From: Acidobacteriota bacterium
GTDB lineage: Bacteria > Acidobacteriota > Vicinamibacteria > Vicinamibacterales > UBA2999
NCBI GenBank assembly: GCA_020851325.1
Contig: JADZCY010000137.1
Location: 1-36,719, forward strand
DNA: 36,719 nt
Reading direction: 5' to 3'
Shown: positions 13,621 to 33,366 of the stretch, piece after piece
How positions within the stretch are numbered: position 1 is the first letter of the stretch
Layout: every line of letters starts with the position of its first letter
Program-made: the position numbers and the translations under genes
The notes under the pieces: model-generated
Seen by the model: the letters and a program-made list of their open reading frames with translations, nothing else
The model's database searches: none
What the model was told of the DNA's origin: nothing

Positions 13621-13639
13621 TCTTCGAACGGAGTTGCCT

Positions 13640-16600: not shown

Positions 16601-17857
16601 ACGACGCAGACGATCACGGTGCCGGTGCTGGGCGATGCCACGCCTGAGCCTTCCGAGACGTTCTTCGTCAACCTGTTCTCGCCGATCAACGCGACGATCA
16701 CCGACGGCCAGGGACTTGGCACCATCACCAACGACGATGGCGGCTCCTTCCCGGTGCCAACAGCCGTGGACGACGTCTACAATCCGTTGTTCAACACGCC
16801 GCTGACGGTGCCCGCGCCAGGTGTGCTTGCCAACGACAACAGCAACGGCGGCGGCGCGATGACGGCGGCGCTCGTCAGCGGTCCCGCGAGCGGCACGCTG
16901 ACCTTCAACGCGGATGGCAGCTTCACCTACACGCCAAACGGCGGCTTCGTCGGCGCCGATGGATTCATCTACCGGCCGTCGAACGTCAACGGCCCGGGCG
17001 ATGAAGGGTTCGTCTCGCTGGTCACCTCGGGCCCGCCGACCATTCAGGCCCCGTACAACCTGCGCGTCGACAACGTCAGCGGCACCACGGTGACGCTGCG
17101 CTGGGATCAGCCGTCGATTGGCCCGGCGGCGACCGCGTTCGTCCTCGAAGGCGGCATCAGTCCCGGTGAGGTGCTGGCGAGCATTCCAACCGGTCATCTG
17201 GGCAGCACGTTCACGTTCGCCGCGCCGGTCGGGTCGTTCTACATCCGCATGCACGCGATGCAGGGCGCGACGAAGAGCCCGGCGTCGAACGAAGTGCGGC
17301 TGCACGTCGCGGTGCCGGTGGCGCCGTCGGCGCCGGCCAACCTGCTCGGCACCGCGCTTGGCAGCAACCTGGCGCTGGCGTGGAAGAACACGTTCCTCGG
17401 CGGCGCGCCAACGGGCCTGGTGCTGGATGTCACCGGCAGCCTGACGACGTCGATTCCGATCGGCGTCAGCGAAGGCTTCAGCTTCGCCGGCGTCCCGGGC
17501 GGCAGCTACACGCTGCAACTGCGTGCCACCAACGCCGGCGGATCGAGCGCGGCGTCGAACCCGGTGTCGCTGACCTTCCCGGCGGCGTCGTGCACGGGCG
17601 CGCCGCAGGCGCCGCAGAACCCGCATGCCTATCGCATCGGCAACCAGATCTTCGTCATCTGGGATCCACCGGCGGCGGGGGCAGCGCAGACCGGCTACAC
17701 GCTGAACGTGAGCGGATCGTTCGTCGGCAGCTTCGCGCTGACGGGCCGTGCCATCAGCGGCGCCGTGCCGCCGGGCACGTACAACCTCAGCGTCGTTGCG
17801 ACCAACGCCTGCGGGACGGGGCCAGCGGCGCCGACGCAGACCATCACGGTGCCGTAG
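13640..17857 (+). CDS. Secreted fungalysin-type (M36) metalloprotease with Calx-beta, P-like, cadherin-like and FN3 domains
   Basis: A large exported zinc protease. The start is GTG 13640, 6 nt after GGAG (TTG 13634 is alternative). A basic N-terminus and hydrophobic run SALLLIVVAVATAATFA form a signal peptide. A fungalysin/thermolysin-type propeptide follows (about residues 90-230), then the M36 catalytic domain with HELAH (H531, E532, H535) and GEGWSD (E558) as third zinc ligand. From about residue 757 a Calx-beta domain begins; it is interrupted at about residues 808-970 by a P-domain-like beta sandwich and resumes with SPGDYQSVSGQLVF. A cadherin-like/VCBS-type domain (about 1040-1130) and three FN3-like domains reach the C-terminus. 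No sorting signal or anchor is seen. Total 1405 aa. Confidence 0.85.
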   Translation: MSSSHHRPLPPRSRTRSSIVSALLLIVVAVATAATFAQSGAPSPFAGGAVALSPPNFDIRTYKLDAAWDNVAFPAEYLAKFTSARERAADLAVARITGVARLEAALPGVRVEANEGTRNTEIVSAMPASPLLSGPSDDRTATLRAFLAANAAAYGVSEAQVAELSLVTDHMNPAGDMGWAELEQRFNGIPVFQGLLRGGFTAKGELVATTGILAEGIDASTLATTPSMSAAQAVSMAAATVGWAIDQSALVETPSAVEGQVRFGAAGPASESSAWLVYFPLQAGVARLSWATQTLGNPDGFLTVLDAETGTMLFRKNLTNYQTQSATYNVYTSDSPAPSSPTPALPGANYQAPMVSRQNVTLIGNEAPNTFNNLGWLTDGTNTTDGNNVEAGMDLVAPDGVDAPVTGSPNRVFSHSYNPGPGNPPPGDDPSTPAFRNGEAVNLFYWTNRFHDATYLLGFDEASRNFQNDNFGRGGVAGDRVRAEGQDFSGTNNANFQTPADGGRGRMQMYVFSAGTSVDRSSGLDQDVILHELAHGLSNRLHNNGSGLGATQSGGMGEGWSDFYGRSILATADEDVNGIYALGGWVTHKLRSETFESYYYGIRRFPFALRAITGGPLNRPHNPLTFADIDPAQMNLADGAYAPAFDNGAFLVHNIGEVWSNSLMEVRARFINRLGFTAGNQRILQLVTNGMKLDPIAPTLLQGRDSILAAAVAAGNIPADIDDIWRGFATRGMGVFATAVGANSGTVVESFLTPSDPVPTFTIDDVSLAEGNAGTTSFVFTVTRANPGSGIESRVNYSTANGTATAPAPTTTTTTLATTIPDSGPASSYPLTANVAGLTGTITKVAVRLNGLSHTFPADIDALLVGPGGQTSMFMSDIGGGSTVSNINLTFEDGAPAPGAPLVTGTVAPTNTGAGDTMPAPAPAGTHNTPLSVFNGLNPNGAWSLYLTDDAGGDLGEFDGFSVLITTTTSPGDYQSVSGQLVFASGVTTQTITVPVLGDATPEPSETFFVNLFSPINATITDGQGLGTITNDDGGSFPVPTAVDDVYNPLFNTPLTVPAPGVLANDNSNGGGAMTAALVSGPASGTLTFNADGSFTYTPNGGFVGADGFIYRPSNVNGPGDEGFVSLVTSGPPTIQAPYNLRVDNVSGTTVTLRWDQPSIGPAATAFVLEGGISPGEVLASIPTGHLGSTFTFAAPVGSFYIRMHAMQGATKSPASNEVRLHVAVPVAPSAPANLLGTALGSNLALAWKNTFLGGAPTGLVLDVTGSLTTSIPIGVSEGFSFAGVPGGSYTLQLRATNAGGSSAASNPVSLTFPAASCTGAPQAPQNPHAYRIGNQIFVIWDPPAAGAAQTGYTLNVSGSFVGSFALTGRAISGAVPPGTYNLSVVATNACGTGPAAPTQTITVP

Positions 17858-19881: not shown

Positions 19882-21126
19882 GTGAGCGATCCGTCTCGCT
19901 GGCGTGTCGGGACGCTGGCTGTCGCGATCGATGCCGCGGCGGCCGTCCTCTGCATCCTGGCCGCCTATCGCCTGCGCTTCGCCGGCGACGAGGCGGCCGG
20001 CTTCCTGTTGGCCGCGTGGCCCGTGCTGGGCGCCGTCGCCGCCTTGCAGTTGTCGGTGGCGTGGACGCTCGGCCTGTATCGCCACGATGGCCATGCGATG
20101 TGGCCGATTCGCCTGGCCACGGCAACGGCGCTGGGTGTGGCCGTCGGTATCCTGGCGCCGGTGTGGCTCGGCGCCAATGCCGGCGTGTCGCGTCAGGCGC
20201 TGGTCATTCAGGGCGCCATGTTCTGCCTCGTCGGCGTGATGTGGCGCGCCTTCGTCGGCCTGCGCGTCCGTCAGGCGCGCGCGGTGGCCATCAGCCAGGC
20301 CTTCGGCGGGCAGGACCTCGTCATCCAGGGCGACGAGGTCGGCTCGATGGCGGGGTCGCTCGAGCGCACGTGGGCGTATCGCCACCTGCTGTTCAATCTC
20401 GTCGCCAAGGATCTCAAGCTCAAGTATCAGCGGTCGGTGCTCGGCTTCGCGTGGTCGCTGCTCAATCCGCTGATCATGATCGGCGTCTACACGGCGGCCT
20501 TCACCTACGTGATGCGCGTGCCGACGCCGCGCTTCTCGTTCTTCATCCTGATCGGCCTGCTGTCGTGGAACTTCTTCGCCGGCGCCGTGGTGAGCGCCAC
20601 CGACGCCGTGGCGGCGCAGGGTTCACTGCTGCGCAGCGTCGTGTTCCCCCGCGTCGTCCTGCCGTTCGCGGCGGTCCTCTACAACCTCGCGCAGTACCTG
20701 CTCACCATCGTCGTCTTCCTGCCGGTGATGCTGATCGTCCATCAGGTGTCGCCGGAGCCGCGGATGCTGCTGTTCCCGGTGTTCCTGCTGCTGCAGGTGA
20801 CCTTCATCGCCGGCCTGGCCATGGTGCTGTCGACGGCGGCGGCGGCGTTCCGCGACGTGCGGCACCTCGTCGAGGTCGGCATCGGCATCTTCTTCTGGGC
20901 GACGCCGATCATCTACGAACCGACGATGGTGCCCGAGCCGTTCCGTCAGGTGGCGCTGCTGGCGCCGATGACGTCGTATATCCGCGCCTATCAGGACATC
21001 TTCTATTACGGTGTGATGCCCGACCTGTCGATCTGGATCGTTGCCGCCGGTTATGCGGCCGGCATGTTCATCGGCGGCCTCAGCGTCTTTCTCGCCTACG
21101 AGGCGCGCATGCCGGAGCTGGTGTAA
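19882..21126 (+). CDS. Polysaccharide ABC exporter permease (Wzm/ABC-2 type) with N-terminal membrane extension
   Basis: The membrane half of an ABC-2 exporter that moves lipid-linked polysaccharide across the inner membrane. The Wzm core begins near residue 160 (WAYRHLLFNLVAKDLKLKYQ), with the family's VLGFAWSLLNPL, LLSWNFFAGAV and FRDVRHLVEVGIGIFFWATPIIY segments and about six membrane spans. The protein is 414 aa against roughly 260 for usual Wzm. The extra 150 N-terminal residues contain about four membrane spans with AYRLRFAGDE and TLGLYRHDG, like the N-terminal membrane region of CapD/FlaA1 proteins. Start GTG 19882; the stop TAA overlaps the ATPase ATG by 1 nt. Confidence 0.88.
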   Translation: MSDPSRWRVGTLAVAIDAAAAVLCILAAYRLRFAGDEAAGFLLAAWPVLGAVAALQLSVAWTLGLYRHDGHAMWPIRLATATALGVAVGILAPVWLGANAGVSRQALVIQGAMFCLVGVMWRAFVGLRVRQARAVAISQAFGGQDLVIQGDEVGSMAGSLERTWAYRHLLFNLVAKDLKLKYQRSVLGFAWSLLNPLIMIGVYTAAFTYVMRVPTPRFSFFILIGLLSWNFFAGAVVSATDAVAAQGSLLRSVVFPRVVLPFAAVLYNLAQYLLTIVVFLPVMLIVHQVSPEPRMLLFPVFLLLQVTFIAGLAMVLSTAAAAFRDVRHLVEVGIGIFFWATPIIYEPTMVPEPFRQVALLAPMTSYIRAYQDIFYYGVMPDLSIWIVAAGYAAGMFIGGLSVFLAYEARMPELV

Positions 21127-21881
21127 TGGACGCGGTGATTGTTGCCGACCGCGTCTCGAAGCGGTACGAGATCCACCACAATCGCGCCCATGCGCTGAAG
21201 TCGCGCGTGATGGGACTGTTCTACGAACGCTATCGATCGCGCGTCGAGGACTTCTGGGCGCTGCGCGACGTCAGCCTCACCGTCGGCCGCGGCGAAGCCG
21301 TCGGCCTGGTCGGGCGCAACGGCTCGGGCAAGAGCACGCTGCTCAAGCTGATTGCCGGCATCCATCGACCGACATCGGGGCAGATTCTCATCCGCCGCGG
21401 TGCCAAGGTGGGGACGATGATCGAACTCGGCGTCGGTTTCAATACCGAGCTGACCGGCGCGGAGAACGTCTTCCTCAACGCCTCCGTCTACGGCCTCAGC
21501 CGTCGCGACGTCGAAGCCATCTACGATCGCGTCGTCGATTACTCGGAGATCGGGCAGTTCATCGACGAGCCGATCAAGAACTATTCGTCTGGCATGGTGA
21601 TGCGTCTGGCGTTCGCCGTTGCCGCGCACCTCGATCCCGAAGTGCTGCTGCTCGACGAGATCTTCGCCGTCGGCGACGAAGCCTTCCAGGACAAGTGCCG
21701 CGCGACGATGCAGCAGTTCATTGCCGAGGGGAAGACGCTGCTGTTCGTGTCGCACTCGGCGAAGTCGGTGCAGCAGATCTGCAGCCGCGTCTGCGTGCTG
21801 AGCCACGGGCAGAAGCTCTTCGACGGGCCGACGGACGAGGGGCTGGATTTCTACCACGCGCTCACCGAGGCCACGCCATGA
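21126..21881 (+). CDS. Polysaccharide ABC exporter ATPase (Wzt type, short form)
   Basis: The ATP-binding half of the glycan exporter. Walker A is GRNGSGKST (about residues 65-73), the KVGTMIELGVGFNTELTGAEN segment is typical of Wzt/TagH, the signature is YSSGM, Walker B is VLLLDEIFAVGD and the switch histidine lies in VSHSAKSV. It is 251 aa and stops after the nucleotide-binding domain, so it lacks the C-terminal carbohydrate-binding domain that reads the modified glycan end in WbdD-type systems. ATG 21126 shares one base with the permease stop. Confidence 0.93.
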   Translation: MDAVIVADRVSKRYEIHHNRAHALKSRVMGLFYERYRSRVEDFWALRDVSLTVGRGEAVGLVGRNGSGKSTLLKLIAGIHRPTSGQILIRRGAKVGTMIELGVGFNTELTGAENVFLNASVYGLSRRDVEAIYDRVVDYSEIGQFIDEPIKNYSSGMVMRLAFAVAAHLDPEVLLLDEIFAVGDEAFQDKCRATMQQFIAEGKTLLFVSHSAKSVQQICSRVCVLSHGQKLFDGPTDEGLDFYHALTEATP

Positions 21882-23518
21882 ACCGTCCGCCGTTGCGCGT
21901 GCTCACGATCTTCCTGCGGACCGGCACCGACGCGTACGCCGGCGCCGAGTCGCGGCTGGCGGATCTTTTCGCGCGCCAGATGCCGGATGTCCAGCGCGAT
22001 GTCGTGGTGGTGGACAACCTGCTGCCGCCTGGTGTCAGTTCCCAGCCCGCCAGCCCGCCAGCCCGCCAGACATCTTCCCTCCCAGTGGCGGAGTCGTCGT
22101 CAGCGCGCGAGGTGATCGGCGGCGACAACAGCGCCTCGGAATTCTCGGCCATCGACGCCGCGCTCGCCCATGTCGGCGTCCGCATCTGGCACTACGACCT
22201 CGTCAACATCGTCACGGCGGCGTTCGAGCAGTTGTATGTGGCGTATCTCGAGCGCTTCACGCCCGCGGTGCTGAACGCCATCGCCGGCCAGCGCGTGTGC
22301 GTGGCGCACATCGACTGCTACAACGAGCCGATCCGCGTGCTCGGGCATCACAGCCAGCACTGGGCGCGGACGTCGTTCGTGATGCTGCCGCCGGCGGAGT
22401 TGATGGCGCTTGGCGGCGTCGTCTCGGTGCGCGATCGCGCGCCGTGGTTCAGCGGCCGCAGCGACGCGCCGTTTACGGAGGACGCGCCACTGTCCGAGAC
22501 GTATCGCCGCTACATTCTCGACTGGCTGCTCGGCGAAGACATCGGCCAGGGCGTGCGCTGGCACAAGACGCTGTCGCTCGACGGCGACGGCCTGGCGGTG
22601 TTCGAACGCAAGGCGCAGGCGATTCTCAACGAGCATCTGTTCGGCGTGCGGCTGCGCACCGCCGGCTGCCGGGTCATCGACGTGACGTGGCTGTCGTCCG
22701 AACTCGCCCGCGGCGTCACGCCCGACTGGTCGACGCCGTGGTACCAGCAGCTCGCAAACCGCGACCGCGACGCCCACGCCATCGACCCCGGCAGCGCCCC
22801 CGCTCGCGTCGCCGCGGCTCCGGTCGTGGCTGCGGACGGCCAACCCGAGCACGACACCAATGCCGCCTACGACATCGAGACGGTGGAGGTGATGGCGCGC
22901 CTGCTGCGCGCGGACAGCATCTGTCTCGACATCGGCGCGCACGAAGGCAGCGTGCTCACCGACATGATCCGCCTGGCGCCGCACGGCAGGCATCACGCCT
23001 TCGAGCCGCTGCCGCATCTGGCGGCGCGCCTCCGCGAGTCCTTCCCCGGCGTGCACATCCACCAGGCCGCGGTGTCGGACGCACCGGGACAGGCGCAGTA
23101 CGTGTACGTGGAGAACGCGCCGGCTTACAGCGGCCTTCGGGAACGTGAATACGATCGCGCCGATCCACGGAAGACGCTGATTGACGTCGAGGTCGTGCAG
23201 ATCGACAAACTGATTCCGGCGGACGAATCGATCGCGTTCATCAAGCTCGACATCGAAGGCGGGGAGTACCACGCGCTCAAGGGCGCAAGCGAGACCATCC
23301 GCCGGTGCCAGCCGGTCATCGTGTTCGAGGCCAGCGTGCGTTCGACGGGTCAGTACGGCGTCACGCCGGAGCAGATGTTCGGGATGCTGGCCGGAGACTT
23401 CGGCTACAACGTCTCGACGATGAGGCGCTGGCTGCGTGGGCAGCCGCCGTTCGACGAAGCCACCTTCGCGCGCAACTGGCACCAGGGGCCCGAGTACTAC
23501 TTCATCGCGTATCCCTGA
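21878..23518 (+). CDS. FkbM-family methyltransferase with N-terminal domain of unknown function
   Basis: Residues about 330-546 form a FkbM SAM-dependent methyltransferase (SICLDIGAHEGSVLTDMIRLAP near 350, FIKLDIEGGEYHALKGA near 455), a family that O-methylates glycans and other substrates. The N-terminal 300 residues begin LRVLTIFLRTGTDAYAGAE and include VVVVDNLLPP and VIGGDNSASEFSAIDAAL; I do not recognise a named domain. Between those two motifs an 8-bp CAGCCCGC repeat (22043-22066, residues about 56-66) adds a Pro/Ser/Ala-rich stretch. ATG 21878 overlaps the ATPase stop, so the gene is part of the exporter operon. Methylation of the exported glycan is inference. Confidence 0.8.
   Translation: MNRPPLRVLTIFLRTGTDAYAGAESRLADLFARQMPDVQRDVVVVDNLLPPGVSSQPASPPARQTSSLPVAESSSAREVIGGDNSASEFSAIDAALAHVGVRIWHYDLVNIVTAAFEQLYVAYLERFTPAVLNAIAGQRVCVAHIDCYNEPIRVLGHHSQHWARTSFVMLPPAELMALGGVVSVRDRAPWFSGRSDAPFTEDAPLSETYRRYILDWLLGEDIGQGVRWHKTLSLDGDGLAVFERKAQAILNEHLFGVRLRTAGCRVIDVTWLSSELARGVTPDWSTPWYQQLANRDRDAHAIDPGSAPARVAAAPVVAADGQPEHDTNAAYDIETVEVMARLLRADSICLDIGAHEGSVLTDMIRLAPHGRHHAFEPLPHLAARLRESFPGVHIHQAAVSDAPGQAQYVYVENAPAYSGLREREYDRADPRKTLIDVEVVQIDKLIPADESIAFIKLDIEGGEYHALKGASETIRRCQPVIVFEASVRSTGQYGVTPEQMFGMLAGDFGYNVSTMRRWLRGQPPFDEATFARNWHQGPEYYFIAYP
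22043..22066 (+). repeat. 8-bp tandem repeat CAGCCCGC, three units, in coding sequence
   Basis: Three perfect 8-bp units plus a decayed fourth lie in frame in the FkbM gene. The same family occurs on the coding strand of two other enzymes at 27392-27423 and 34589-34668. Confidence 0.9.
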
Positions 23519-23969: not shown

Positions 23970-24067
23970 CAATCCTCAATCGCCAATCCTTCAATCGCGC
24001 AATCCGAATCACTCAATCGCCCTTCGCCCAATCGTCAACAATCGCCCAATCCCCCGATCCGTCAATC
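23970..24067. repeat. CAATC-rich degenerate array at the 3' end of the GT-C gene
   Basis: Ten CAATC copies (23970, 23977, 23984, 23992, 24000, 24014, 24029, 24039, 24047, 24063) have 7-8-nt spacing at first, then looser. On the minus strand this reads GATTG and includes the TGA stop and last codons of the glycosyltransferase ending at 24062. Confidence 0.8.
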
Positions 24068-25654
24068 GGGCAATTTCACAGCCCTGCAAATCTCGAACCT
24101 CCCACCGAGATTGCTCACCGTCTCACACTCGTCGGTCATGGTGATGCCGATGTAGCCGAGGATGCGTGCCTGTTCGGGCTCGAGGAATGGCGGCTGCGCT
24201 TCGATGACGTACAGCCGTCCCTCCGGCGTCGCGTTCACCGCCGTTTCGATGCGCGGCCAGAACGCCGTCTGACCGTTGAGACCGCCGTTGCTGAAGTGAC
24301 GGATGAAGGTCGTGGACGCCGGGAAGAACGGCACGAGATACCCCTGCGGCATCCCCCACATCACCATCGTCGCGTTGGCGTACTTGGCGAGGCCGCCGCG
24401 GTCGATGCCGAAGTACGACGACGACCACGGGGCGCGGCCCCAGTCGGGGGCGTGGGTGTGCACGGCGGCGGCGAAGAACACCGGCAGCAGGAGCGCGAGA
24501 AACACACGCGGGTGACGGGCAATACGCGCCAGACAGCCGGCGACGATGACGCCGGCGACGAGTTCGACGGGGACGAGGTAGCGGTAATACGCGAACAGGC
24601 GCAGCCACACGACGTACGTCACCACGGCGAAGACGCAGACGAGCACGAACGCTGGCGAGGCGGCAGGCGTGGTGCGTGGGTTCGAGCGGCGGAGGATCGC
24701 CGCCACAGCGGCGACTGCCAGCGTCAGGAAGAGGAGCGCGATCCGTCCGTCGCGCATCACCGGTTCGCTCACCAGCGTCTGATCCCACAGCCAGTAGAAC
24801 GGCAGGAACAGCAGGTGCCGCGCGTCGTGCACGAGCCACCGCCCGTCGGCGAGGCTCTCCACCGTCGCGAACGGCGACGCGAAGACCTGATTGAAGTACG
24901 GGAAGAAGGGATTGGCGAAGTGCTGCTGCATCAGCACCGCCCACCAGGCGCCGGTGACGAGCGCACCGGCGACGCCGCCGGCGCCGACCGCGGCCATGCG
25001 CACGAGTCGCTGCCGCCAGGTGCCGCGGAAGGCGAGCGCGGCCACGCCGAGTCCTACCGCCGCGGGCGCGGTGGCGAGCTTGGCGCCAACGGCAAGGCCG
25101 CCGAGCACGCCGGCCAGCACCAGCCGTCGCGGCCGCGGATCATCGCCAGTGGCGGCTTCATCCACCAGCACCATCAGCGCCAGCAGCACCAGCGTGGCCA
25201 CCGTGTCGTCGCCCATCGAACTGCCGATGAGCGAGCGGTAACCGGCCGCCGTGGCGGCAAGCAGCGCCGCACACACACCCACGATCGGCGCGATACGCGC
25301 GAACGCCGGCGGCACGACGCGCGTGGCGATGACGTGCACGGCCCACAACGCGAGGCCGTGGAACGCCGCCAGCGTGCTGAAGAACACGATCGGCGGGACG
25401 CCGAGGCGTTCGGCGAGGGAGAGCGGCAGATCGAGAACGGGGTTGTGGTACGACTGGAGCCCGGCGACGTGCACGTCGCGATCGAGACGGCCCTCGAGCC
25501 ACTGATACGGGTTGTAGAAGTGGTAGTTGAGGAGATCCCAGTTGAGATCCTGCCCCTGCGCCAGGCCCAGCGCGACGCCCAGGCAGACGTACGCCACGGC
25601 CACCGCGACCTGGGGAGCGAGCCGGCGGATGAATGCATTCCAGCGTGTGGCCAT
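24062..25654 (-). CDS. Polytopic GT-C-like membrane glycosyltransferase, candidate
   Basis: A 530-aa inner-membrane protein with about ten hydrophobic segments. Near the N-terminus, DLNWDLLNYHFYNPYQWLEGR carries acidic/aromatic residues in the first periplasmic loop, as in GT-C enzymes that use lipid-linked sugar donors. A long soluble C-terminal tail follows (from about SSSYFGIDRGGLAKYAN). It is directly downstream of the GT4 gene with no gap (start 25654, upstream stop 25655-25657) and is last in the minus-strand operon. The final codons and TGA lie in the CAATC repeat. GT-C assignment is by topology and loop motif only. Confidence 0.68.
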   Translation of the reverse strand: MATRWNAFIRRLAPQVAVAVAYVCLGVALGLAQGQDLNWDLLNYHFYNPYQWLEGRLDRDVHVAGLQSYHNPVLDLPLSLAERLGVPPIVFFSTLAAFHGLALWAVHVIATRVVPPAFARIAPIVGVCAALLAATAAGYRSLIGSSMGDDTVATLVLLALMVLVDEAATGDDPRPRRLVLAGVLGGLAVGAKLATAPAAVGLGVAALAFRGTWRQRLVRMAAVGAGGVAGALVTGAWWAVLMQQHFANPFFPYFNQVFASPFATVESLADGRWLVHDARHLLFLPFYWLWDQTLVSEPVMRDGRIALLFLTLAVAAVAAILRRSNPRTTPAASPAFVLVCVFAVVTYVVWLRLFAYYRYLVPVELVAGVIVAGCLARIARHPRVFLALLLPVFFAAAVHTHAPDWGRAPWSSSYFGIDRGGLAKYANATMVMWGMPQGYLVPFFPASTTFIRHFSNGGLNGQTAFWPRIETAVNATPEGRLYVIEAQPPFLEPEQARILGYIGITMTDECETVSNLGGRFEICRAVKLPD

Positions 25655-27595
25655 TCAGGGGACGCTGCGAGTCTCCCGAAGCCTACGCGAAAAGCCGCGC
25701 GCCAGGCCAGCGCGGGCGCGCAGTTGCGGCGAAGGACTCACGGCGACGGCATCGGAGAGGTGCGCGAGTGCCAGACGGGCCGCCGCATCCCAGTTCCACG
25801 TGCCGGCATCAGCGGCCGTGCCCAGCGCCACCGCCGGCACCTCGTCGCCGCGGCGGAGCGCCGTCATCACGTCGACGAGTTCGCGTTCGGTGCGGAACGT
25901 GTGCAGCCGCCCGGGACCGCGATAGCGCGCGGCAAGTTCATCCACGAGCGCCGACGCGCGCGCCACCACCGTGCGGCCGCAGGCCAGGCCGTGCACGATC
26001 GGCAGGCCGAAGCCTTCGTAGAACGACGGAAAGACGATGATGTCGGCGCGGGAGAAGCACGCTTCGACCACCGCCTGATCGACGCTGCCGCTGTCGAACC
26101 GCGTCACCAGCGGCGTGCGCACCTGATCACGATCGCCGAACACCACGAGCGGTTGTGTCGGGAACGCGCGCGTGAGCAGATCGACGGTCGGTGCAATGTG
26201 TTTGTGGTCGTAGCGATTGCCGATCAGCAGCCAGTACGGCGGCGCCGGGCCCTCGCTTGATGTGACGCCGGTGTAGTCATCCCGCATCAGCGACAGAGAG
26301 CAGACATCGACGGCAACACCCGCCTGCCAGCCGAAGCGGCGCTCGAACCTGTCGCGCGAGAACGCCGAGATGAACATCAGCACGTCGGCTTCGACGCCAA
26401 GGCGCGCCCACACACCGTCGATTTCGTCAGGCGCCGTGTAGACGATGTCCCAGGCGATGGTGTCGAGCATCCAGTAGGCGGTGACCGCCGCGTGGGCGCC
26501 CAGCGAATCCACCTCGTCGTGCGACCACGGCTGCGACAGCCGCAGGCCGGCGGCATACGCCGGGAACGGCGTGCCGGCATGGTGCAGCGTCCAGCGTGGA
26601 TAGCGGACCGACAGTTGCCACCACGCATCGACGTCGGCGTGCACCCACAAGCCGACGTGGCCGTCAGGCCGCGCCCGGTAGAGCGCGTCGGCCATGCCCA
26701 GGATCGCGGACGACGTGCCGTTGAACACGGCGGCGAGATTGCGCGCGTCGAGCAGCAGCGATGACGGCCGTTCCCACGCCGCGCTCATCACCGCCTCGAC
26801 GCCGAACGGCTGACGTCCCGCGCGCGCGGTCAGCATGCGAGCGGTTTCCGGAAAGCGCTCCACGATGCGCGCGTGATCCGCCTCTGGCACCATCGGTCCC
26901 CACGCCTCGGCCTCGATCGCGATGCGGTTGCACAGCACGGTGCGGAAGCCGGCGCGCCGCGCTCGCGTCAGCAGGTCTTCGCACGCACCCCAGACGTCGT
27001 GCCAGCCGTCGACGACCACCGGCAGGTTGGCCGGGATGTCGGCGCGGAGCAGCAGCAGCGGCGCCAGCGTTTCGGTGAGGAACTGGAAGTCCGGCGCGTA
27101 GGCGAGCGCACGCACCGGTACGAGCGTGCCCGTGGTGTCGTCGCCCTGCGCCGGTGCGAACACATGCGCCGCCGGACCGCCGCGCGGCGACACGCGCGGC
27201 ACCGCGCAGCCGAGCAGCGGGTCGTGCGTCAACGCATCGGCCAGCGCCTCGACGGCCTCGAGCGTCGGCCACGCGCCAGGGCCCACCAGCAGCAGCGGCG
27301 CGTCATGCTGCGCCGCGAGATCCGCCGCCCAGGCCAGCGCCTGCACGCCGCTCGCCTCTGCTGCCGCGTTCCACCCCTCGGGCCACGAAGGGGCTGGAGG
27401 GCTGGCGGGCTGGCGGGGTGGGGATGCGCCATCTGCGCGGCTGCGGCCCGTCGCCTCCGCGGCGATCATCACAACAGCCTGCGTCACGACCAGGCCAAGC
27501 GCATCGGCGGCCGACAGACGAGCGATGCGTGTGTCGAGATCGTGCGGCGCGATGTCGCGCGCATCGATGAGCGCGATCAGGGAGCGTTCCGTCAT
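25655..27595 (-). CDS. Glycosyltransferase with C-terminal GT4-type domain and unusual N-terminal half
   Basis: A 646-aa protein. Residues about 445-600 form a GT-B nucleotide-sugar domain of the group 1/GT4 type: YWLLIGNRYDHKH, VVFGDRDQV and the signature PSFYEGFGLPIVHGLACG near 523. The first 270 residues resemble a glycosyltransferase-like alpha/beta domain (DAPLLLVGPGAWPTLEAV, VVVDGWHDVWGACEDLL) without a clear metal site. Residues about 275-445 (DARNLAAVFNGTSSAI onwards) belong to the GT-B N-lobe. An 8-bp repeat at 27392-27423 gives PPRQPASPPAP (about residues 57-68). The start ATG 27595 overlaps the stop of the giant gene by 4 nt. Confidence 0.8.
   Translation of the reverse strand: MTERSLIALIDARDIAPHDLDTRIARLSAADALGLVVTQAVVMIAAEATGRSRADGASPPRQPASPPAPSWPEGWNAAAEASGVQALAWAADLAAQHDAPLLLVGPGAWPTLEAVEALADALTHDPLLGCAVPRVSPRGGPAAHVFAPAQGDDTTGTLVPVRALAYAPDFQFLTETLAPLLLLRADIPANLPVVVDGWHDVWGACEDLLTRARRAGFRTVLCNRIAIEAEAWGPMVPEADHARIVERFPETARMLTARAGRQPFGVEAVMSAAWERPSSLLLDARNLAAVFNGTSSAILGMADALYRARPDGHVGLWVHADVDAWWQLSVRYPRWTLHHAGTPFPAYAAGLRLSQPWSHDEVDSLGAHAAVTAYWMLDTIAWDIVYTAPDEIDGVWARLGVEADVLMFISAFSRDRFERRFGWQAGVAVDVCSLSLMRDDYTGVTSSEGPAPPYWLLIGNRYDHKHIAPTVDLLTRAFPTQPLVVFGDRDQVRTPLVTRFDSGSVDQAVVEACFSRADIIVFPSFYEGFGLPIVHGLACGRTVVARASALVDELAARYRGPGRLHTFRTERELVDVMTALRRGDEVPAVALGTAADAGTWNWDAAARLALAHLSDAVAVSPSPQLRARAGLARGFSRRLRETRSVP
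27392..27423 (-). repeat. 8-bp tandem repeat (CAGCCCGC on the coding strand), four units, in coding sequence
   Basis: Forward units ggctggag, ggctggcg, ggctggcg and a degenerate gggtgggg read as CAGCCCGC-type on the minus, coding strand. Same family and orientation to the gene as 22043-22066 and 34589-34668. Confidence 0.88.
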
Positions 27596-30500
27596 CGCGG
27601 CGTGGCGAAGAACTGCCGCAGCCGCGCGTCGAGCACGCCGTAGGCTTCATTGGCGGAGAGCGCGTCGGCCACGCGCGCGCGCGCATCGGCGGTGAACGGC
27701 GTCGCGTCGCGCCTGATCGCGGTGATCACGGCATCGGCAAAGTCCGACCAGTCGCTGGCCTCGTGCACGAACGCATTCAGCGACGCGTCGATACCGTCGC
27801 GGTTGTGCGGCCAGCCAATCACCGGCCGCAGGTGCGCCAGCGCTTCGACAGTCTTGATCTTGAGCCCGGTGCCAGCGACCGCGGGGTTGATTACGGCGCG
27901 GGCTCGGGCGTACTCGGGCGCGAGATCGGCGACGTGCCCCAGACGATGCACGCCAGGTACGCCGGGCGGGACGGCCGCGCTGACGCGTCCGGCCACCCGT
28001 AGTTCGGCCGTTGGGATCGCGGCCCGCACGCGCGGCCACGCGAACTTGAGGAAGTCGCGCACGCCGGCGACGTTGAGCCGGTTACCCGAACCCGGCAGGA
28101 ACACCACCGGCGCCGCCGGCCACCCATCGTCCGCGCGCACGTCGGCGTCGACGCCGGCGACGATGACGTCGCGATCCGGCGCCAGCCGCTGCAGCGCCTC
28201 GCCATCAGCCGGATGAATCGCCACGACGAGATCGGCGCGCTTCAGCAGCCGCGCTTCCTCGACGGCCGGCGTTTCGGCGTCGCCAATGCCGTAGGCGATG
28301 ACGTTCGATCCCTTCTGCGAGAAGACGTCGATGGTGTCGACGATCTTGAGCACGCGCTCCGGCAGAGCGGGGAAGACGCGCGTCATGAAGATGTACTCGA
28401 CCAGCAGCGCACACGACCCCAGCGCCTCCGCCATCATCGTCGTCACCGTCGCGGCGGTGTCGTGACAGTAGGCGAGGTCGGGCCCCGGTTCACTCCGCCG
28501 CGGCGCCGGCGACTGGCCGGCCAGGCCGCGAAGCACGTCCGGCACATCGTGCAGGCGATACTCCACGAGCCCGCTGCGATCGCACAGCACGACGTTGCCA
28601 TAGCGCCGCACGAGCTCGTCGAACACGCCGGGCGCCGGCTCTTCGCCCGGCAGCGGCGCCAGGATGAAGACGATGCGGTACTGCGTGCGCAGGTGATCGA
28701 GCAACCGCGCCAGTCGATACTCGTTGCCCGCGCCGACCGGGTACGGCGAGACGTGGCTCAGGCACACCAGCGTCGGCGCCGTTGCCGCTGCGCCGATCAC
28801 ACGGATAGGCGGTGCTGGCGCCGGCGACGCCTCGGCCGATGGACGCGGCAGACGGCCCTCGGCGCGGCCGTGACGCATGTAGTGCGCGAGCGGATTGAAC
28901 CCGGCGCGTGCGACGTCGCGATAGGTGTCGAGATAGCAGGTGACCGAGAAGTCCGGCGACGGATCGCGGCCCTCGCGCCAGCCGTGCAGCGCGAAGTGCT
29001 CAAGCGGATTGCCGACGACGTCGACGTAGCGTTCGAGGTACCAGCGCGGATCGAACCAGGCGTTCGGCCGCAGTCCCTCGCGCCAGCCGATGGTCAGGAA
29101 GTGCGCCAGCGGCGTGATGCGTGCCTCGCGCAGGTGCGGCATCTGCGCGAGATAACCGGCCGTGTCGAACAGCGGATGCGGATCGTGCCACGTGCCCGGC
29201 TTCGCGGTGACGTAGTGCTCGAGCGCGCGGCCGCGGCTGGCCTCGCCGGCCTGCCCGATGTAGAACGCCGGATTGAAGAGCGGGTGCGGCAGCCGATCCT
29301 CCGAGGCGCCGCGCCGGGCGTAGTGATCGAGCGGCGGCATCGTGCCGGCATCGGCATAGGTCTGCCGATAGAAGCGCGCGGAAAACAGCGGATGCGGATC
29401 GGCGTTCGGACACGCGCTTCCCAGGTAGTGCGCGAGCGGGTTCACGCCCTCCGGGAGGTGCGGCACCTGCGCGCGGTAGTGGGCGACGTCGAACAACGGA
29501 TGCGGCGATGCCGTGCCCAGATCCGCCGTGAAGACGAAATGGCTCAGCGGCGTCAGCGCCTGCCTCGTTGCGTCCTCCGGCCACTGCGAGAGATAGAAAC
29601 GCGGATCGAACAGCGGATGCGGCGCCCGCAGATCCCAGCCGCCCTGGCGGATGTAGTGACGGAGCGGCGCTTCGCCTGGCCCGACATCGGCATGCACGGC
29701 GCGATACCACACCGGGTCGAACAACGGATGCGAAGAGAAACCGGCCATGTCGCCGCGCGTCAGGAAGTGCGTGGTCAGCGGCGTGTCGGGCGGCGCCTGG
29801 CTGGCCGCCTGATAGTGCGCGCGATCGAACAGTCCGCTCAGGGTCAGCTGCGCCACGCGCAACCGGAACTCGCGGCGGCGCAGACGCACGAGGCCGCGGA
29901 CGAAATGCAGCGGATGCAACCGCGCCCAGGCGAGCGGGACGTCGGATTCGATCAGTCGCTGCCGCGCCCGCTCACCCATCCAGCGTGGCTGCACGTGCGG
30001 CAGCAGTCGCGTCGCGGCGCGCGTCGCCGTGTCGCGACGTTCGCGATCGACAACCGCGCGCTCGTCGTCGAGCAGCGCGTGCTGGCGGCGGAGGTCGGCG
30101 TCGTGCTGCTGCAGCAGCGTGGTCCGTTCCTGATCGCGATCGCGAAGCTGGGCGTCGGCACGCGTCAGCCGGGCGAGCAGCGCGTCCTGCTCCCGTTGCA
30201 GCACCTCGCGACTCGCCATCAGCGCGTTGTGCGCGCTGGTCTGGTGGTCGCGCTCGTCGATCGCCTGCTGCAGCGCCACCTGCGCCGCGGCGAGGTGACG
30301 CATGTAGTCCGCTTCAACCGCAGCGCGGCTCTCGAGCAGCGCCTGCTCGTGTTCCGCTTCACGCGTGGCGCGAGCGGACTCCGCCTGCGCAAGCGCGGAT
30401 TCCGCCTGCGACACCTGCTGCCGCAGCGCGTCGCGTTCGGCGATCGCTTCCACCTGCGCCTGCTCGATACGCGCACGCGCGGCGACGACGTCGTCGAGTT

Positions 30501-32370
30501 GCGCGCGGATCTGTTCCGCCGTCCGGGCGCCGTCTTCGACACGCGCCAGCGCGTCGTCACGCTCGGCGTGCAGGCGATGGAGGTTGGCTTCGTGCTCCGA
30601 CCGCACGCGCGCAAGTGCCGCTTCGCCGTCGTGCACCGCGCGTTCAGCGGCTTCGGCGCGTGTCCGCAGTCCGAGGAGATCGGTGACCGACGGCCGCGGT
30701 TCGAGTCGCAACCGCTCGAGGCCATCGACGATGGACTCCGGCGCCATGCCGGTGGTGTCCTGCTGCAGGTCTGCTTCGAGCGTGAGATACCGGCGGACGT
30801 CGTCCGCGGGAATCGCGACGCCGAGCCCGGCGGCCACCTCCGCGGCGAGATCCGCCAGCCGCATCGGCACGCCATCCGCAGGTGTGGCCACCGAGCGGAA
30901 GCGCGAGAGACTCCAGTACACGCCGCGGAAGACGACGAAGCCGTACTCGACCTTCCATGTCGGCGCCCATTCGAGATCGAAAAACGTGAACGCGTCGTCC
31001 TGCCGCAGCAGGTTGAAGGGTGTCGCGTCGACCAGCGTGGACGGTACGTGCGCGGCAGCAGCCGGATGCCGCAGGCCGGCGGCGCGCTGCAGCGCATCGC
31101 GCCAGGGCCGCGCCCAGGCGACGACATCGGCGGTGGTCCAGCCCGGACGGTTCAGCACCGGCGCCAGTTGCTGCGTCCACAGCTCGCCGTGCTGGAACGG
31201 CGTCGTGAGTTCGTGATGCGCGGTGCCGTCGGTCGTTGTCGGCAACGGCGCCTGTCGCACGAGAGGCTCGCGTTCGACAGCGACGCCCTCGGGCGTGGCG
31301 CGGAAGCGCGTTTCGCGCGCCCAGCCGGCGCGGCGCGTGCCCGAGTAGTGCCACGCCAGCACGTGACGATCGACCACCTTGCGCGGCGCCCGGCTCGCCA
31401 CCAGCAGGAACGAGTTCGACAGCCCGCGCAGCACGCCGTTGCGCGCGGCCAGCGTCAGCGCCTGTTCGAGCGAGAAGAGCGGCAGCGGCGGTGCCTGCTC
31501 GTCGGCGACCGGCGTGGACGACACCAGCGCCGCGAGATCCTCGGCCCAGGCGCGATGATCGAGTCCCGCTGGCGACACGATGACGCGCGGCAGCTTGTAG
31601 TCGGGGAATGGCGCGAACACCGCGTGATGTGGCAGCCCGGCATCGGCGACGAGCGCGGCCAGTTCGCCAAGGCCAAACGTGCGCGGATCGTTTGCCGCAT
31701 AGCCGTCGTTGACGCCGGTCATCACCGAACCAAGGTGATCCTCGGGCCAGCCGGCGAGGTACTTCAATCCCAACTGGTTCTCGATCGCGACGATCAACAC
31801 GCCGGTGTCGTCGAGATGCGCGGCCGCCTGCGCGATCAGCTCGCGCGCGGCGTCAGGCCCTTGTCCGAACCGGCTGGCCCATTCGACGACGCCGACGAGC
31901 GTGACGGCGGAGAAGCGGGTGCCGAGACCGAAGCGTTCGAGGCGGTCGTGATAGACGGCGACGTTGGCGAGATCGCGGCAGCGCGCGGCGGTGATGCTGG
32001 CGCGGCGACTACTGCCTTCGAGCGCGACGACGCGCCCGCCGAGCTCGCCGAGATAGCGCGTCAGCGCGCCGCACCCGGCCCCGATCTCGAGCGTCGTCCC
32101 GCGCAGCAGCGGCGCCAGCGGCCGCAGCAGATGCGCACGTGCCGCCGACAGGTGATATCGCGTCGGCCAGTCGGAGATGGCGGCGGCCAGCTCGGGAGAA
32201 TGCAGCGAGACGTCGGCGGCTTCGCGCACGATCGCCAGCAGCGTGTCTTCGGTGGCGTCGCCCTCGGAATACGCGAAGGCGTCGTCCGCGCCGGCACGCA
32301 CGAAGAGACGCGACTCACCGTGCCACTGGTAAGCGGTCGACGGCGTCTCTCTGGTGAAGCGGATAGCCAC
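27592..32370 (-). CDS. 1592-residue methyltransferase / kinase-like / coiled-coil / HPLFD-repeat / glycosyltransferase protein
   Basis: Domains in order: a class I SAM methyltransferase (LEIGAGCGALTRYLGE near residues 92-107, to about 290); a kinase-like region with LVDATPFNLL (D near 447) and, some 16 residues on, FDLEW, which match the catalytic-loop D...N and the later metal-binding D of protein-kinase-fold enzymes; a long coiled coil rich in Ala/Glu/Arg/Gln (about 560-785); nine copies of a 36-38-residue repeat (about 840-1172) with consensus HPLFDPxxY...NPLxHYxxxGxxEGRxP; and a GT-B glycosyltransferase domain (from about 1198, LSHVSPYPVGAGNEYRLARLL, to VAGTGLKIKTVEALAHLRPVIG). Start is GTG 32370. 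The first three parts are ordered as in WbdD, the O-antigen chain terminator. It is first in the minus-strand operon. Activities are inferred. Confidence 0.78.
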   Translation of the reverse strand: MAIRFTRETPSTAYQWHGESRLFVRAGADDAFAYSEGDATEDTLLAIVREAADVSLHSPELAAAISDWPTRYHLSAARAHLLRPLAPLLRGTTLEIGAGCGALTRYLGELGGRVVALEGSSRRASITAARCRDLANVAVYHDRLERFGLGTRFSAVTLVGVVEWASRFGQGPDAARELIAQAAAHLDDTGVLIVAIENQLGLKYLAGWPEDHLGSVMTGVNDGYAANDPRTFGLGELAALVADAGLPHHAVFAPFPDYKLPRVIVSPAGLDHRAWAEDLAALVSSTPVADEQAPPLPLFSLEQALTLAARNGVLRGLSNSFLLVASRAPRKVVDRHVLAWHYSGTRRAGWARETRFRATPEGVAVEREPLVRQAPLPTTTDGTAHHELTTPFQHGELWTQQLAPVLNRPGWTTADVVAWARPWRDALQRAAGLRHPAAAAHVPSTLVDATPFNLLRQDDAFTFFDLEWAPTWKVEYGFVVFRGVYWSLSRFRSVATPADGVPMRLADLAAEVAAGLGVAIPADDVRRYLTLEADLQQDTTGMAPESIVDGLERLRLEPRPSVTDLLGLRTRAEAAERAVHDGEAALARVRSEHEANLHRLHAERDDALARVEDGARTAEQIRAQLDDVVAARARIEQAQVEAIAERDALRQQVSQAESALAQAESARATREAEHEQALLESRAAVEADYMRHLAAAQVALQQAIDERDHQTSAHNALMASREVLQREQDALLARLTRADAQLRDRDQERTTLLQQHDADLRRQHALLDDERAVVDRERRDTATRAATRLLPHVQPRWMGERARQRLIESDVPLAWARLHPLHFVRGLVRLRRREFRLRVAQLTLSGLFDRAHYQAASQAPPDTPLTTHFLTRGDMAGFSSHPLFDPVWYRAVHADVGPGEAPLRHYIRQGGWDLRAPHPLFDPRFYLSQWPEDATRQALTPLSHFVFTADLGTASPHPLFDVAHYRAQVPHLPEGVNPLAHYLGSACPNADPHPLFSARFYRQTYADAGTMPPLDHYARRGASEDRLPHPLFNPAFYIGQAGEASRGRALEHYVTAKPGTWHDPHPLFDTAGYLAQMPHLREARITPLAHFLTIGWREGLRPNAWFDPRWYLERYVDVVGNPLEHFALHGWREGRDPSPDFSVTCYLDTYRDVARAGFNPLAHYMRHGRAEGRLPRPSAEASPAPAPPIRVIGAAATAPTLVCLSHVSPYPVGAGNEYRLARLLDHLRTQYRIVFILAPLPGEEPAPGVFDELVRRYGNVVLCDRSGLVEYRLHDVPDVLRGLAGQSPAPRRSEPGPDLAYCHDTAATVTTMMAEALGSCALLVEYIFMTRVFPALPERVLKIVDTIDVFSQKGSNVIAYGIGDAETPAVEEARLLKRADLVVAIHPADGEALQRLAPDRDVIVAGVDADVRADDGWPAAPVVFLPGSGNRLNVAGVRDFLKFAWPRVRAAIPTAELRVAGRVSAAVPPGVPGVHRLGHVADLAPEYARARAVINPAVAGTGLKIKTVEALAHLRPVIGWPHNRDGIDASLNAFVHEASDWSDFADAVITAIRRDATPFTADARARVADALSANEAYGVLDARLRQFFATPR

Positions 32371-32385
32371 GCTGAGGCGTTAGGA

Positions 32386-32391
32386 TACTAT
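32386..32391. promoter_or_regulatory. Shared -10-like element in the 39-nt divergent gap
   Basis: GATACTATC is symmetrical about its centre, so it reads TACTAT on plus (toward the epimerase, ATG 32410) and TAGTAT on minus (toward the giant gene, GTG 32370). TTGCAA, itself a palindrome, lies at 32394-32399. No strong -35 is visible on either strand. Confidence 0.4.
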
Positions 32392-32409
32392 CTTTGCAAC
32401 GCGCTCCCA

Positions 32410-33366
32410 ATGCATGCATTCGTGACCGGCGGCGCCGGCTTCATCGGTAGTTCTCTGGTCGATCGCCTGCTGGCCGACGGCCACTCCGTGGTGGCGTTCG
32501 ACAACTTTTCTACCGGGCAGCGCGCCTTCCTCGACGGTGCGTCCGCCCACGCCAGCTTCACCCTCGTCGAAGGCGATACGCTCGACCTGCCGGCGCTCAC
32601 CGCGGCCATGGCCGGCTGTGATGTCGTCTTCCACCTCGCCGCCAACGCCGACGTGCGCTTCGGCACCGAGCATCCGCGCCGCGATCTCGAACAGAACACC
32701 ATCGCGACGTTCAACGTGCTCGAGGCCATGCGCGCCACCGGCATTCGCCGCATCGCGTTCTCGTCCACCGGCTCGGTGTACGGCGAAGCGCACGTGTTCC
32801 CGACGCCGGAGGACGCACCATTTCCCGTGCAGACATCGCTGTATGGGGCGTCGAAGCTCGCCGGCGAAGGGTTGATTGCGGCATACGCCAGCGGTTTCGG
32901 CTTCGAAGGCTGCGTCTTCCGCTTCGTGTCCATCCTCGGCGAGCGCTACACGCACGGGCACGTGTTCGACTTCTACAAGAGCCTGCGCGCCGATCCGACG
33001 CGGCTGCGCGTGCTCGGCAACGGCAAGCAGCGGAAGTCGTACCTCTACATCGGTGACTGCCTCGACGCGATGCTGCTGGCGATGCGCCGCACGCGGAACG
33101 CCGTCGAGATCTACAACCTTGGCACCGACGAGTACTGCGAGGTGAACGACTCCATCGGCTGGATCTGCGGCCGGCTCGGCATCGATCCCGTGCGCGAGTA
33201 CACCGGCGGCGAGCGCGGGTGGATCGGCGACAACCCGTTCATCTTTCTCGACACCGCGAAGATCCGCGGGCTCGGCTGGCGTCCGAAGCTGACGATCGAA
33301 CAGGGCATCGTCCGCACGCTGGAATATCTGCAGGCGCATCCCGAGATCCTCGAGGCGCGCGCATGA
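32410..33366 (+). CDS. NAD-dependent nucleotide-sugar epimerase (GalE-like extended SDR)
   Basis: A 318-aa extended SDR predicted to epimerise or modify a UDP-sugar. FVTGGAGFIGSSLVDRLL is the NAD-binding motif, HLAANADVR and SSTGSVYGEA (Ser/Thr) precede the catalytic pair in YGASKLAGE, and VFRFVSILGERY and GKQRKSYLYIGDC match GalE-like sugar epimerases. The start ATG 32410 is 39 nt from the divergent giant gene; the large open frame running back to 28213 is only the antisense of that gene. The stop overlaps the next gene by 4 nt. The substrate is unknown; UDP-glucose or UDP-glucuronate are the family defaults. Confidence 0.87.
   Translation: MHAFVTGGAGFIGSSLVDRLLADGHSVVAFDNFSTGQRAFLDGASAHASFTLVEGDTLDLPALTAAMAGCDVVFHLAANADVRFGTEHPRRDLEQNTIATFNVLEAMRATGIRRIAFSSTGSVYGEAHVFPTPEDAPFPVQTSLYGASKLAGEGLIAAYASGFGFEGCVFRFVSILGERYTHGHVFDFYKSLRADPTRLRVLGNGKQRKSYLYIGDCLDAMLLAMRRTRNAVEIYNLGTDEYCEVNDSIGWICGRLGIDPVREYTGGERGWIGDNPFIFLDTAKIRGLGWRPKLTIEQGIVRTLEYLQAHPEILEARA

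What the first reader, a model, noticed from the sequence alone, without database searches (positions are those of the whole stretch)
27592..32370. WbdD-like chain-terminator architecture fused to HPLFD repeats and a glycosyltransferase
One protein carries, in order, a SAM methyltransferase, a kinase-like region (LVDATPFNLL and FDLEW), a coiled coil of about 225 residues, nine 36-38-residue repeats and a GT-B domain. In E. coli O9a, WbdD has methyltransferase, kinase and a coiled-coil ruler that sets O-antigen length beside an ABC exporter. Here an ABC exporter is 4 kb away. Joining a ruler-like rod and a repeat array to a transferase in one chain would be a distinct way to control glycan length.
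Basis: partly seen in the sequence, partly recalled or inferred. Interest (0 to 1): 0.85.

Follow-up and report, generated by a model that had tools for sequence, protein, structure and literature searches.

The report
Capping enzyme, ruler and polymerase fused
One acidobacterial protein appears to carry an enzyme that caps a growing surface-sugar chain, a long rod that would measure it, an undescribed helical repeat array and a sugar-adding enzyme; the overall plan is known from Klebsiella O7, but the repeat array, its reuse with other capping enzymes and the missing recognition domain on the exporter are new.

Summary
Window 27592-32370(-) is one intact 1592-aa protein: SAM methyltransferase, a small kinase-like domain, a heptad-patterned rod (about 561-790), nine 35-39-residue repeats and a GT-B domain, in an ABC-exporter (Wzm/Wzt) O-antigen-type locus. 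The architecture recurs in congeners, so it is not an assembly artefact. "WbdD-like" is half right. It works like WbdD, but its head belongs to the Klebsiella O7 ORF6 methyltransferase-kinase terminator family: residues named for ORF6 fall on near-invariant columns of an 80-member alignment. The kinase models as an APH/choline-kinase fold (pLDDT 92). A terminator, ruler and transferase in one chain is already known (O12 WbbB, O7 ORF6). New here: (1) a confidently modelled repeat solenoid with no match in Pfam, NCBIfam or PDB, sitting between rods and glycosyltransferases and used with other heads (other methyltransferases, pyruvyltransferase, sulfotransferase, probably FkbM), or at the start of a separate neighbouring glycosyltransferase; (2) the rod is at shuffled-baseline identity and varies in length (220/274/308) while its neighbours stay 54-64% identical, as a ruler should; (3) the exporter's Wzt lacks the carbohydrate-binding module that reads the cap in characterised terminator systems. 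Function is inferred, not shown.

The parts
27592..32370 (-). whole multidomain gene, 1592 aa (GTG start)
   Evidence: same domain order in congeners L017/L010 and L018/L012
31381..32370 (-). N-terminal SAM methyltransferase, residues 1-330
   Evidence: Pfam/PDB matches; SAM-binding positions of ORF6-O7 coincide with conserved columns
30691..31380 (-). APH/choline-kinase-like kinase domain, residues 331-560; candidate catalytic Asp448 codon at 31027-31029
   Evidence: AF2 pLDDT 92.1, VIA-align Z up to 8.0, invariant D448/N453/D465/E467
30001..30690 (-). coiled-coil rod (ruler candidate), residues 561-790
   Evidence: heptad test z 5.1; low identity and variable length among orthologues
29836..30000 (-). 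basic, predicted-helical linker after the rod, residues 791-845 (possible membrane-associated helix)
   Evidence: sequence and AF2 helices; membrane role inferred from WbdD
28843..29835 (-). array of nine HPLFD/NPLxHY-type repeats, residues 846-1176, alpha-solenoid
   Evidence: AF2 pLDDT 86.6, pTM 0.80; repeat starts; no Pfam, NCBIfam or PDB match
27595..28803 (-). GT4 / GT-B glycosyltransferase (TIGR03087-like, below its cut-off), residues 1190-1592
25655..27595 (-). GT4 glycosyltransferase, start overlapping the main gene's stop
   Evidence: 48% identical in L010
24062..25654 (-). multi-pass membrane protein of the same operon, GT-C-like appearance
   Evidence: assignment inferred
19882..21126 (+). 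Wzm exporter permease with a conserved N-terminal extension of about 140 residues
21126..21881 (+). Wzt exporter ATPase, 251 aa, without the C-terminal carbohydrate-binding module
21878..23518 (+). FkbM-type methyltransferase with an unassigned N-terminal part of about 330 aa

Best explanation
This is an assembly protein of an ABC-transporter-dependent O-antigen-like polysaccharide. The N-terminal kinase and methyltransferase most likely phosphorylate and then methylate the non-reducing end of the growing chain and so stop elongation, as K. pneumoniae O7 ORF6 does. The coiled-coil rod holds this capping site away from the membrane, so only chains long enough to reach it are capped. The repeat solenoid at the other end of the rod is a rigid platform that ties the rod to the polymerising GT domain, in this protein within one chain. 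Shown: the domains, the kinase fold model, the conserved catalytic residues, the heptads, rod length variation and exporter linkage. Inferred: methyl-phosphate chemistry, the ruler role, the platform role of the array, and that the GT is part of the polymerase.
For: Six ORF6-O7 SAM-binding residues recur at one constant offset in 40 of 80 relatives and five of six here, against 0 of 1600 shuffles with six and 1 with five. ORF6's essential D441 corresponds by position to D448, inside an invariant DxxxxN...DxE motif. APH-like kinase model, matching the paper's AmiN result (Z 7.4). The one sensible sequence hit of the kinase profile in PDB is LicA choline kinase over this motif (E 0.28, suggestive only). 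Most relatives whose transporter was found lie right beside wzm-wzt; Citrobacter and Pseudomonas plasmids have wzm-wzt-terminator in order. The rod diverges to shuffled baseline and changes length while flanking domains are conserved. Array between rod and GT in fused forms, at the N-terminus of the separate GT in split forms. The locus also encodes a PF00953 sugar-phosphate transferase (WecA-type initiator) and heptosyltransferase-like genes.
Against: No biochemistry. The true ORF6-O7 sequence could not be fetched, so membership rests on residue positions and predicted fold. A Lys conserved in 74 of 80 (column 352) is Arg here, Thr or Gly in congeners, so the kinase could be weakened or altered. 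Wzt has no CBM, unlike characterised terminator systems and unlike 36 of 37 repeat-free relatives, so capping may not license export. Foldseek alone gives no significant kinase match, and Z 8 is near the level of common arrangements.
Confidence: 0.72

Rival explanations
1. The head decorates the chain end but does not control length. Export is coupled to elongation through the CBM-less Wzt, as in K. pneumoniae O1/O2, where a terminating pyruvate group only diversifies the structure; the rod is then a scaffold.
For: Wzt is 251 aa without Wzt_C here and 253 aa in the two congeners examined; the O1 precedent; the genome's only Wzt_C lies on another contig with its own Wzm.
Against: Rod length varies while its neighbours are conserved, the head family is a shown length-setting terminator in O7 (PMC11231755), and a long rod has no obvious use in pure decoration.
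Confidence: 0.2
2. The kinase is impaired in this clade and the head acts as a methyltransferase-only terminator, as E. coli O8 WbdD does.
For: The conserved Lys column is Arg/Arg/Thr/Gly in the window protein and its congeners.
Against: D448, N453, D465 and E467 remain, and the fold is intact in the model.
Confidence: 0.2
3. The repeat array is mainly a glycan-binding or export-gating module that replaces the missing Wzt CBM, rather than a structural platform.
For: Repeat-bearing clusters tend to have CBM-less Wzt (5 of 7 lineages against 1 of 18, Fisher p 0.002; 3 of 5 after dropping Kps-type exporters, p 0.02; post hoc).
Against: Legionella and Azospirillum have both repeats and a long Wzt; repeats also occur at the ends of RTX-like and peptidase proteins.
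Confidence: 0.12
4. A true WbdD orthologue with extra domains added.
For: Same order of methyltransferase, kinase and coiled coil; ABC exporter in the locus.
Against: No WbdD chain among PDB sequence matches with profiles of the kinase (E up to 10) or the whole head (E up to 0.01); the residue pattern fits ORF6-O7, whose kinase the authors call quite different from WbdD's.
Confidence: 0.03

Closest known systems
K. pneumoniae O7 ORF6 (methyltransferase-kinase terminator, PMC11231755)
   Same: N-terminal methyltransferase, about 220-aa APH-like kinase with a matching catalytic Asp, coiled coil, C-terminal GT modules, ABC-exporter locus
   Different: ORF6 has an Ig-like CBM after the kinase, two GT2 modules and no reported repeat array; here nine repeats, one GT-B domain and a CBM-less Wzt
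E. coli O9a / K. pneumoniae O3 WbdD
   Same: methyltransferase, kinase and coiled-coil ruler in an ABC-dependent pathway
   Different: eukaryotic-type kinase; polymerase WbdA is a separate protein recruited by WbdD; no sequence match found here
K. pneumoniae O12 WbbB
   Same: terminator, coiled coil and polymerising GTs in one polypeptide
   Different: the terminator is a Kdo glycosyltransferase, not a methyltransferase-kinase; no repeat array reported
K. pneumoniae O4 ORF7
   Same: terminator whose coiled coil is attached to a helical bundle
   Different: the bundle is TPR-like and precedes the coil; the terminator is a GT137 Kdo transferase
E. coli group 3 capsule methyltransferases (PMC13171606, PMC10433991)
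   Same: methyltransferase, long coil and two of the same repeats beside an ABC exporter (L129-L131); coil length variation noted in PMC13171606
   Different: Methyltransf_24 head without kinase; GTs on the next gene; Kps-type exporter

Membership tests
ORF6-O7-type methyltransferase-kinase terminator | SAM-binding residues Y28, Y66, G91, G93, E112, Y158 | tested here: met
   five of six at constant offset +6 (Y34, Y72, G97, G99, E118; W164 for Y158); all six in 40 of 80 relatives, 0 of 1600 shuffles
ORF6-O7-type methyltransferase-kinase terminator | unannotated kinase-like domain of about 223 aa after the methyltransferase, with catalytic Asp | tested here: met
   no Pfam hit; AF2 APH-like fold; D448 at the place of D441, invariant in 80 of 80
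ORF6-O7-type methyltransferase-kinase terminator | coiled coil after the kinase | tested here: met
ORF6-O7-type methyltransferase-kinase terminator | direct sequence comparison with ORF6 itself (MN173773) | not tested
   the record is not in the collections searched
ORF6-O7-type methyltransferase-kinase terminator | ATP- and SAM-dependent methyl-phosphate capping | not testable with these tools
   needs an enzyme assay
WbdD | sequence relationship to WbdD | tested here: not met
   kinase and head profiles recover no WbdD chain from PDB sequences
WbdD | eukaryotic-protein-kinase-like fold as in WbdD | tested here: inconclusive
   APH and choline kinases rank first; WbdD not listed, which does not exclude it
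WbdD | coiled-coil spacer after the catalytic head | tested here: met
Polymerase-terminator ABC pathway | Wzm/Wzt exporter in the locus | tested here: met
Polymerase-terminator ABC pathway | Wzt carries a C-terminal CBM that reads the cap | tested here: not met
   Wzt is 251 aa; the only Wzt_C in the genome is on contig C144
Known repeat families (Pfam, NCBIfam) | array matches a curated model | tested here: not met
   no match for the array or for near-consensus arrays of L132 and L122

The most novel reading that the evidence does not exclude
The HPLFD/NPLxHY arrays are an undescribed, widespread solenoid that couples interchangeable capping enzymes on coiled-coil rulers (methyltransferase-kinase, other methyltransferases, pyruvyltransferase, sulfotransferase) to polysaccharide polymerases. 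With a CBM-less Wzt they form a third way of linking chain termination to export, distinct from the CBM-read (O9a) and uncapped (O2a) modes.
Probability: 0.25. Interest if true: 0.8.

Novelty: new variant of a known kind. Interest (0 to 1): 0.58.

Why it matters
Bacterial surface-glycan length is set in several species by a cap plus a ruler, but only a few such machines have been characterised. This family shows the same rod and repeat module carrying different capping chemistries and different polymerase GTs, fused or split between neighbouring genes. That makes natural rod-length and head-swap comparisons available and gives a testable role to a repeat that has no entry in Pfam or NCBIfam. 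The co-occurrence of a terminator head with a CBM-less exporter questions whether cap recognition by Wzt is required in all terminator systems.

Tried and rejected
A first heptad statistic was not specific (the methyltransferase region scored equally) and was replaced by a slip-tolerant model. Foldseek with the kinase model gave no hit below E 0.2. The repeat model gave no PDB match by Foldseek and none with Z of 2 or more by VIA-align on 11 chains; this does not show that the fold is new. K. pneumoniae O7 ORF6 itself could not be retrieved. 'HPLFD' found nothing relevant in the literature, and the coiled-coil ruler paper PMC4650267 is not held. A strict link of repeats with CBM-less Wzt was rejected: Legionella and Azospirillum are exceptions. 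The 1717-aa plus-strand ORF over this gene was rejected as a high-GC shadow. Repeats are not specific to terminators: many alphaproteobacterial GTs and RTX-like proteins carry them.

Full report
OBSERVATION. The window (36,719 bases, 68.5% GC) is a whole contig of a metagenome-derived genome of 458 contigs. Named congeners in the genome collection are labelled Acidobacteria, so the host is taken to be an acidobacterium. The gene at 27592-32370(-) encodes 1592 aa without interruption. Pfam finds a methyltransferase and a GT4 domain and nothing for the kinase-like region or the repeats.

SURROUNDINGS. The minus-strand operon is the main gene, a GT4 glycosyltransferase (25655-27595) and a multi-pass membrane protein (24062-25654), the genes abutting or overlapping by a few bases. 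Facing it on the plus strand are Wzm (19882-21126), Wzt (21126-21881) and an FkbM-type methyltransferase (21878-23518). Upstream of the main gene and divergent are an epimerase, a UDP-sugar dehydrogenase and a short-chain dehydrogenase. Further left lie an RmlD-like reductase, an aminotransferase, a GT2, a PF00953 sugar-phosphate transferase of the WecA type and two heptosyltransferase-like genes. This is an ABC-dependent O-antigen-type locus. The exporter ends 5.7 kb, not 4 kb, from the main gene. Gene content is conserved in congener G004.

HEAD FAMILY. A genome-collection scan found 287 relatives of the head; the best 80 come from Acidobacteria, Proteobacteria, Nitrospirales, Bacteroidetes, Actinobacteria and others. 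D448, N453, D465 and E467 are invariant in 80 of 80. The closest characterised protein is ORF6 of K. pneumoniae O7 (PMC11231755): a methyltransferase, an unannotated 223-aa kinase inactivated by D441A, a coiled coil and two GT2 modules, which caps the O7 chain with methyl-phosphate. Y28, Y66, G91, G93, E112 and Y158 recur at one constant offset in 40 of 80 aligned proteins and five of six in the window protein (Trp replaces Y158); 1600 shuffles gave none with six and one with five. D441 corresponds to D448. AlphaFold2 of 326-575 (79 sequences) gave pLDDT 92.1 and pTM 0.89; VIA-align ranks APH(3')-Ia (Z 8.0) and choline kinase LicA (Z 7.8) among the first, as the paper found for ORF6 (AmiN, Z 7.4). 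These Z values are modest and Foldseek alone is not significant; the invariant motif, and LicA's position at the catalytic loop in an independent, non-significant profile search (E 0.28), are what make the kinase reading convincing. A Lys conserved in 74 of 80 is Arg here, so activity is not certain.

ROD. Residues 561-790 contain almost no Pro or Gly. A heptad model that allows phase slips gives positive log-odds and z 5.1 here, 7.1 to 8.1 in congeners, and z 2.6 or less with negative log-odds in other parts of the protein. Between orthologues the head is 59-64% identical, array 54-57%, GT 57-63%, but the rod only 33-40% against a shuffled baseline of 28-35%, and its length is 274, 220 or 308 residues. 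A spacer whose length, not sequence, matters would look like this.

ARRAY. Nine repeats of 35-39 residues start at 845 to 1138. The model (four sequences, pLDDT 86.6, pTM 0.80) shows most units as a short bridge strand, a helix on FDxxWY and a helix on PLxHY. Foldseek found no PDB match below E 7; Pfam and NCBIfam have no model.

OTHER HEADS. Searching with the repeat found the same order (head, coil, repeats, GT) with other heads: Methyltransf_24 (Azospirillum L132, Acidobacteria L123; E. coli L129-L131 with the GT on the next gene), Methyltransf_11 (L124), polysaccharide pyruvyl transferase (L125), sulfotransferase (L134) and FkbM (L128, only a short rod candidate). Heptad tests are strong for L125, L129, L132 and L134 (z 4.9 to 12.5). 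In split forms a head-coil gene precedes a repeat-GT gene (Ensifer L043 z 4.8, Phaeobacter L203 z 7.7, Paracoccus L200 z 4.5); Agrobacterium L031 has the split but no clear coil. The array thus lies where ruler meets polymerase whether or not they share a chain, which is why I favour a platform role. Repeats also occur on many GTs without a coil and on RTX-like proteins, so the array is a general module, not a terminator signature.

EXPORT. In the characterised systems a CBM on Wzt reads the cap, while CBM-less Wzt goes with uncapped or optionally capped chains. Of relatives without repeats that lie beside a found transporter, 36 of 37 have a long Wzt (412-466 aa). Wzt is short (251-253 aa) in the window and in two congeners, and in most other repeat-bearing clusters, with two long exceptions. 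The comparison was made after seeing the data, lineages are few and Kps-type exporters confound it. Still, a terminator head beside a CBM-less Wzt departs from both described modes. The genome's only Wzt_C is on contig C144 with its own Wzm; Wzt_C occurs in 140 of 149 related genomes.

VERDICT. The finding is real. The general strategy is known; this is a new variant with an undescribed repeat module, interchangeable heads and an unusual exporter. Novelty rests on the array and its distribution; catalytic, ruler and platform roles are inferred.

Noticed in passing
window 19882-20300 (+): Wzm has a conserved N-terminal hydrophobic extension of about 140 residues, reminiscent of the membrane domain of CapD/WbaP-type proteins (from memory), in all three congeners compared.
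   Followed up: partly
L129, L130, L131: E. coli plasmids and one 4.9-Mb E. coli record carry a methyltransferase with a rod of about 320-550 residues and two of the same repeats beside a kps-like exporter; the gene is in 17 of 5426 E. coli genomes. PMC13171606 mentions coil-length variation in such genes and treats it as not critical.
   Followed up: partly
L023, L025, L041 and similar loci: In Methylophilus and some Nitrospirales the methyltransferase-kinase module lies towards the C-terminal side of proteins of 2,500-3,500 aa, the reverse of the usual order.
   Followed up: no
L126 14928-18062: Two rod proteins side by side: a coil-repeat protein and a contig-truncated FkbM-like coil protein.
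   Followed up: partly
G000:C144 (L194): A second exporter with its own Wzm and a Wzt bearing a CBM; Wzt_C is present in 140 of 149 related genomes.
   Followed up: partly
window 21878-22900 (+): The FkbM methyltransferase has about 330 N-terminal residues with no family match.
   Followed up: no
window 13634-17857 (+): Large M36 metallopeptidase with Calx-beta, Big and cadherin-like domains between glycan genes.
   Followed up: no
window 28213-33366 (+): A 1717-aa open frame antisense to the main gene whose end is the epimerase; the rest looks like a high-GC shadow.
   Followed up: no
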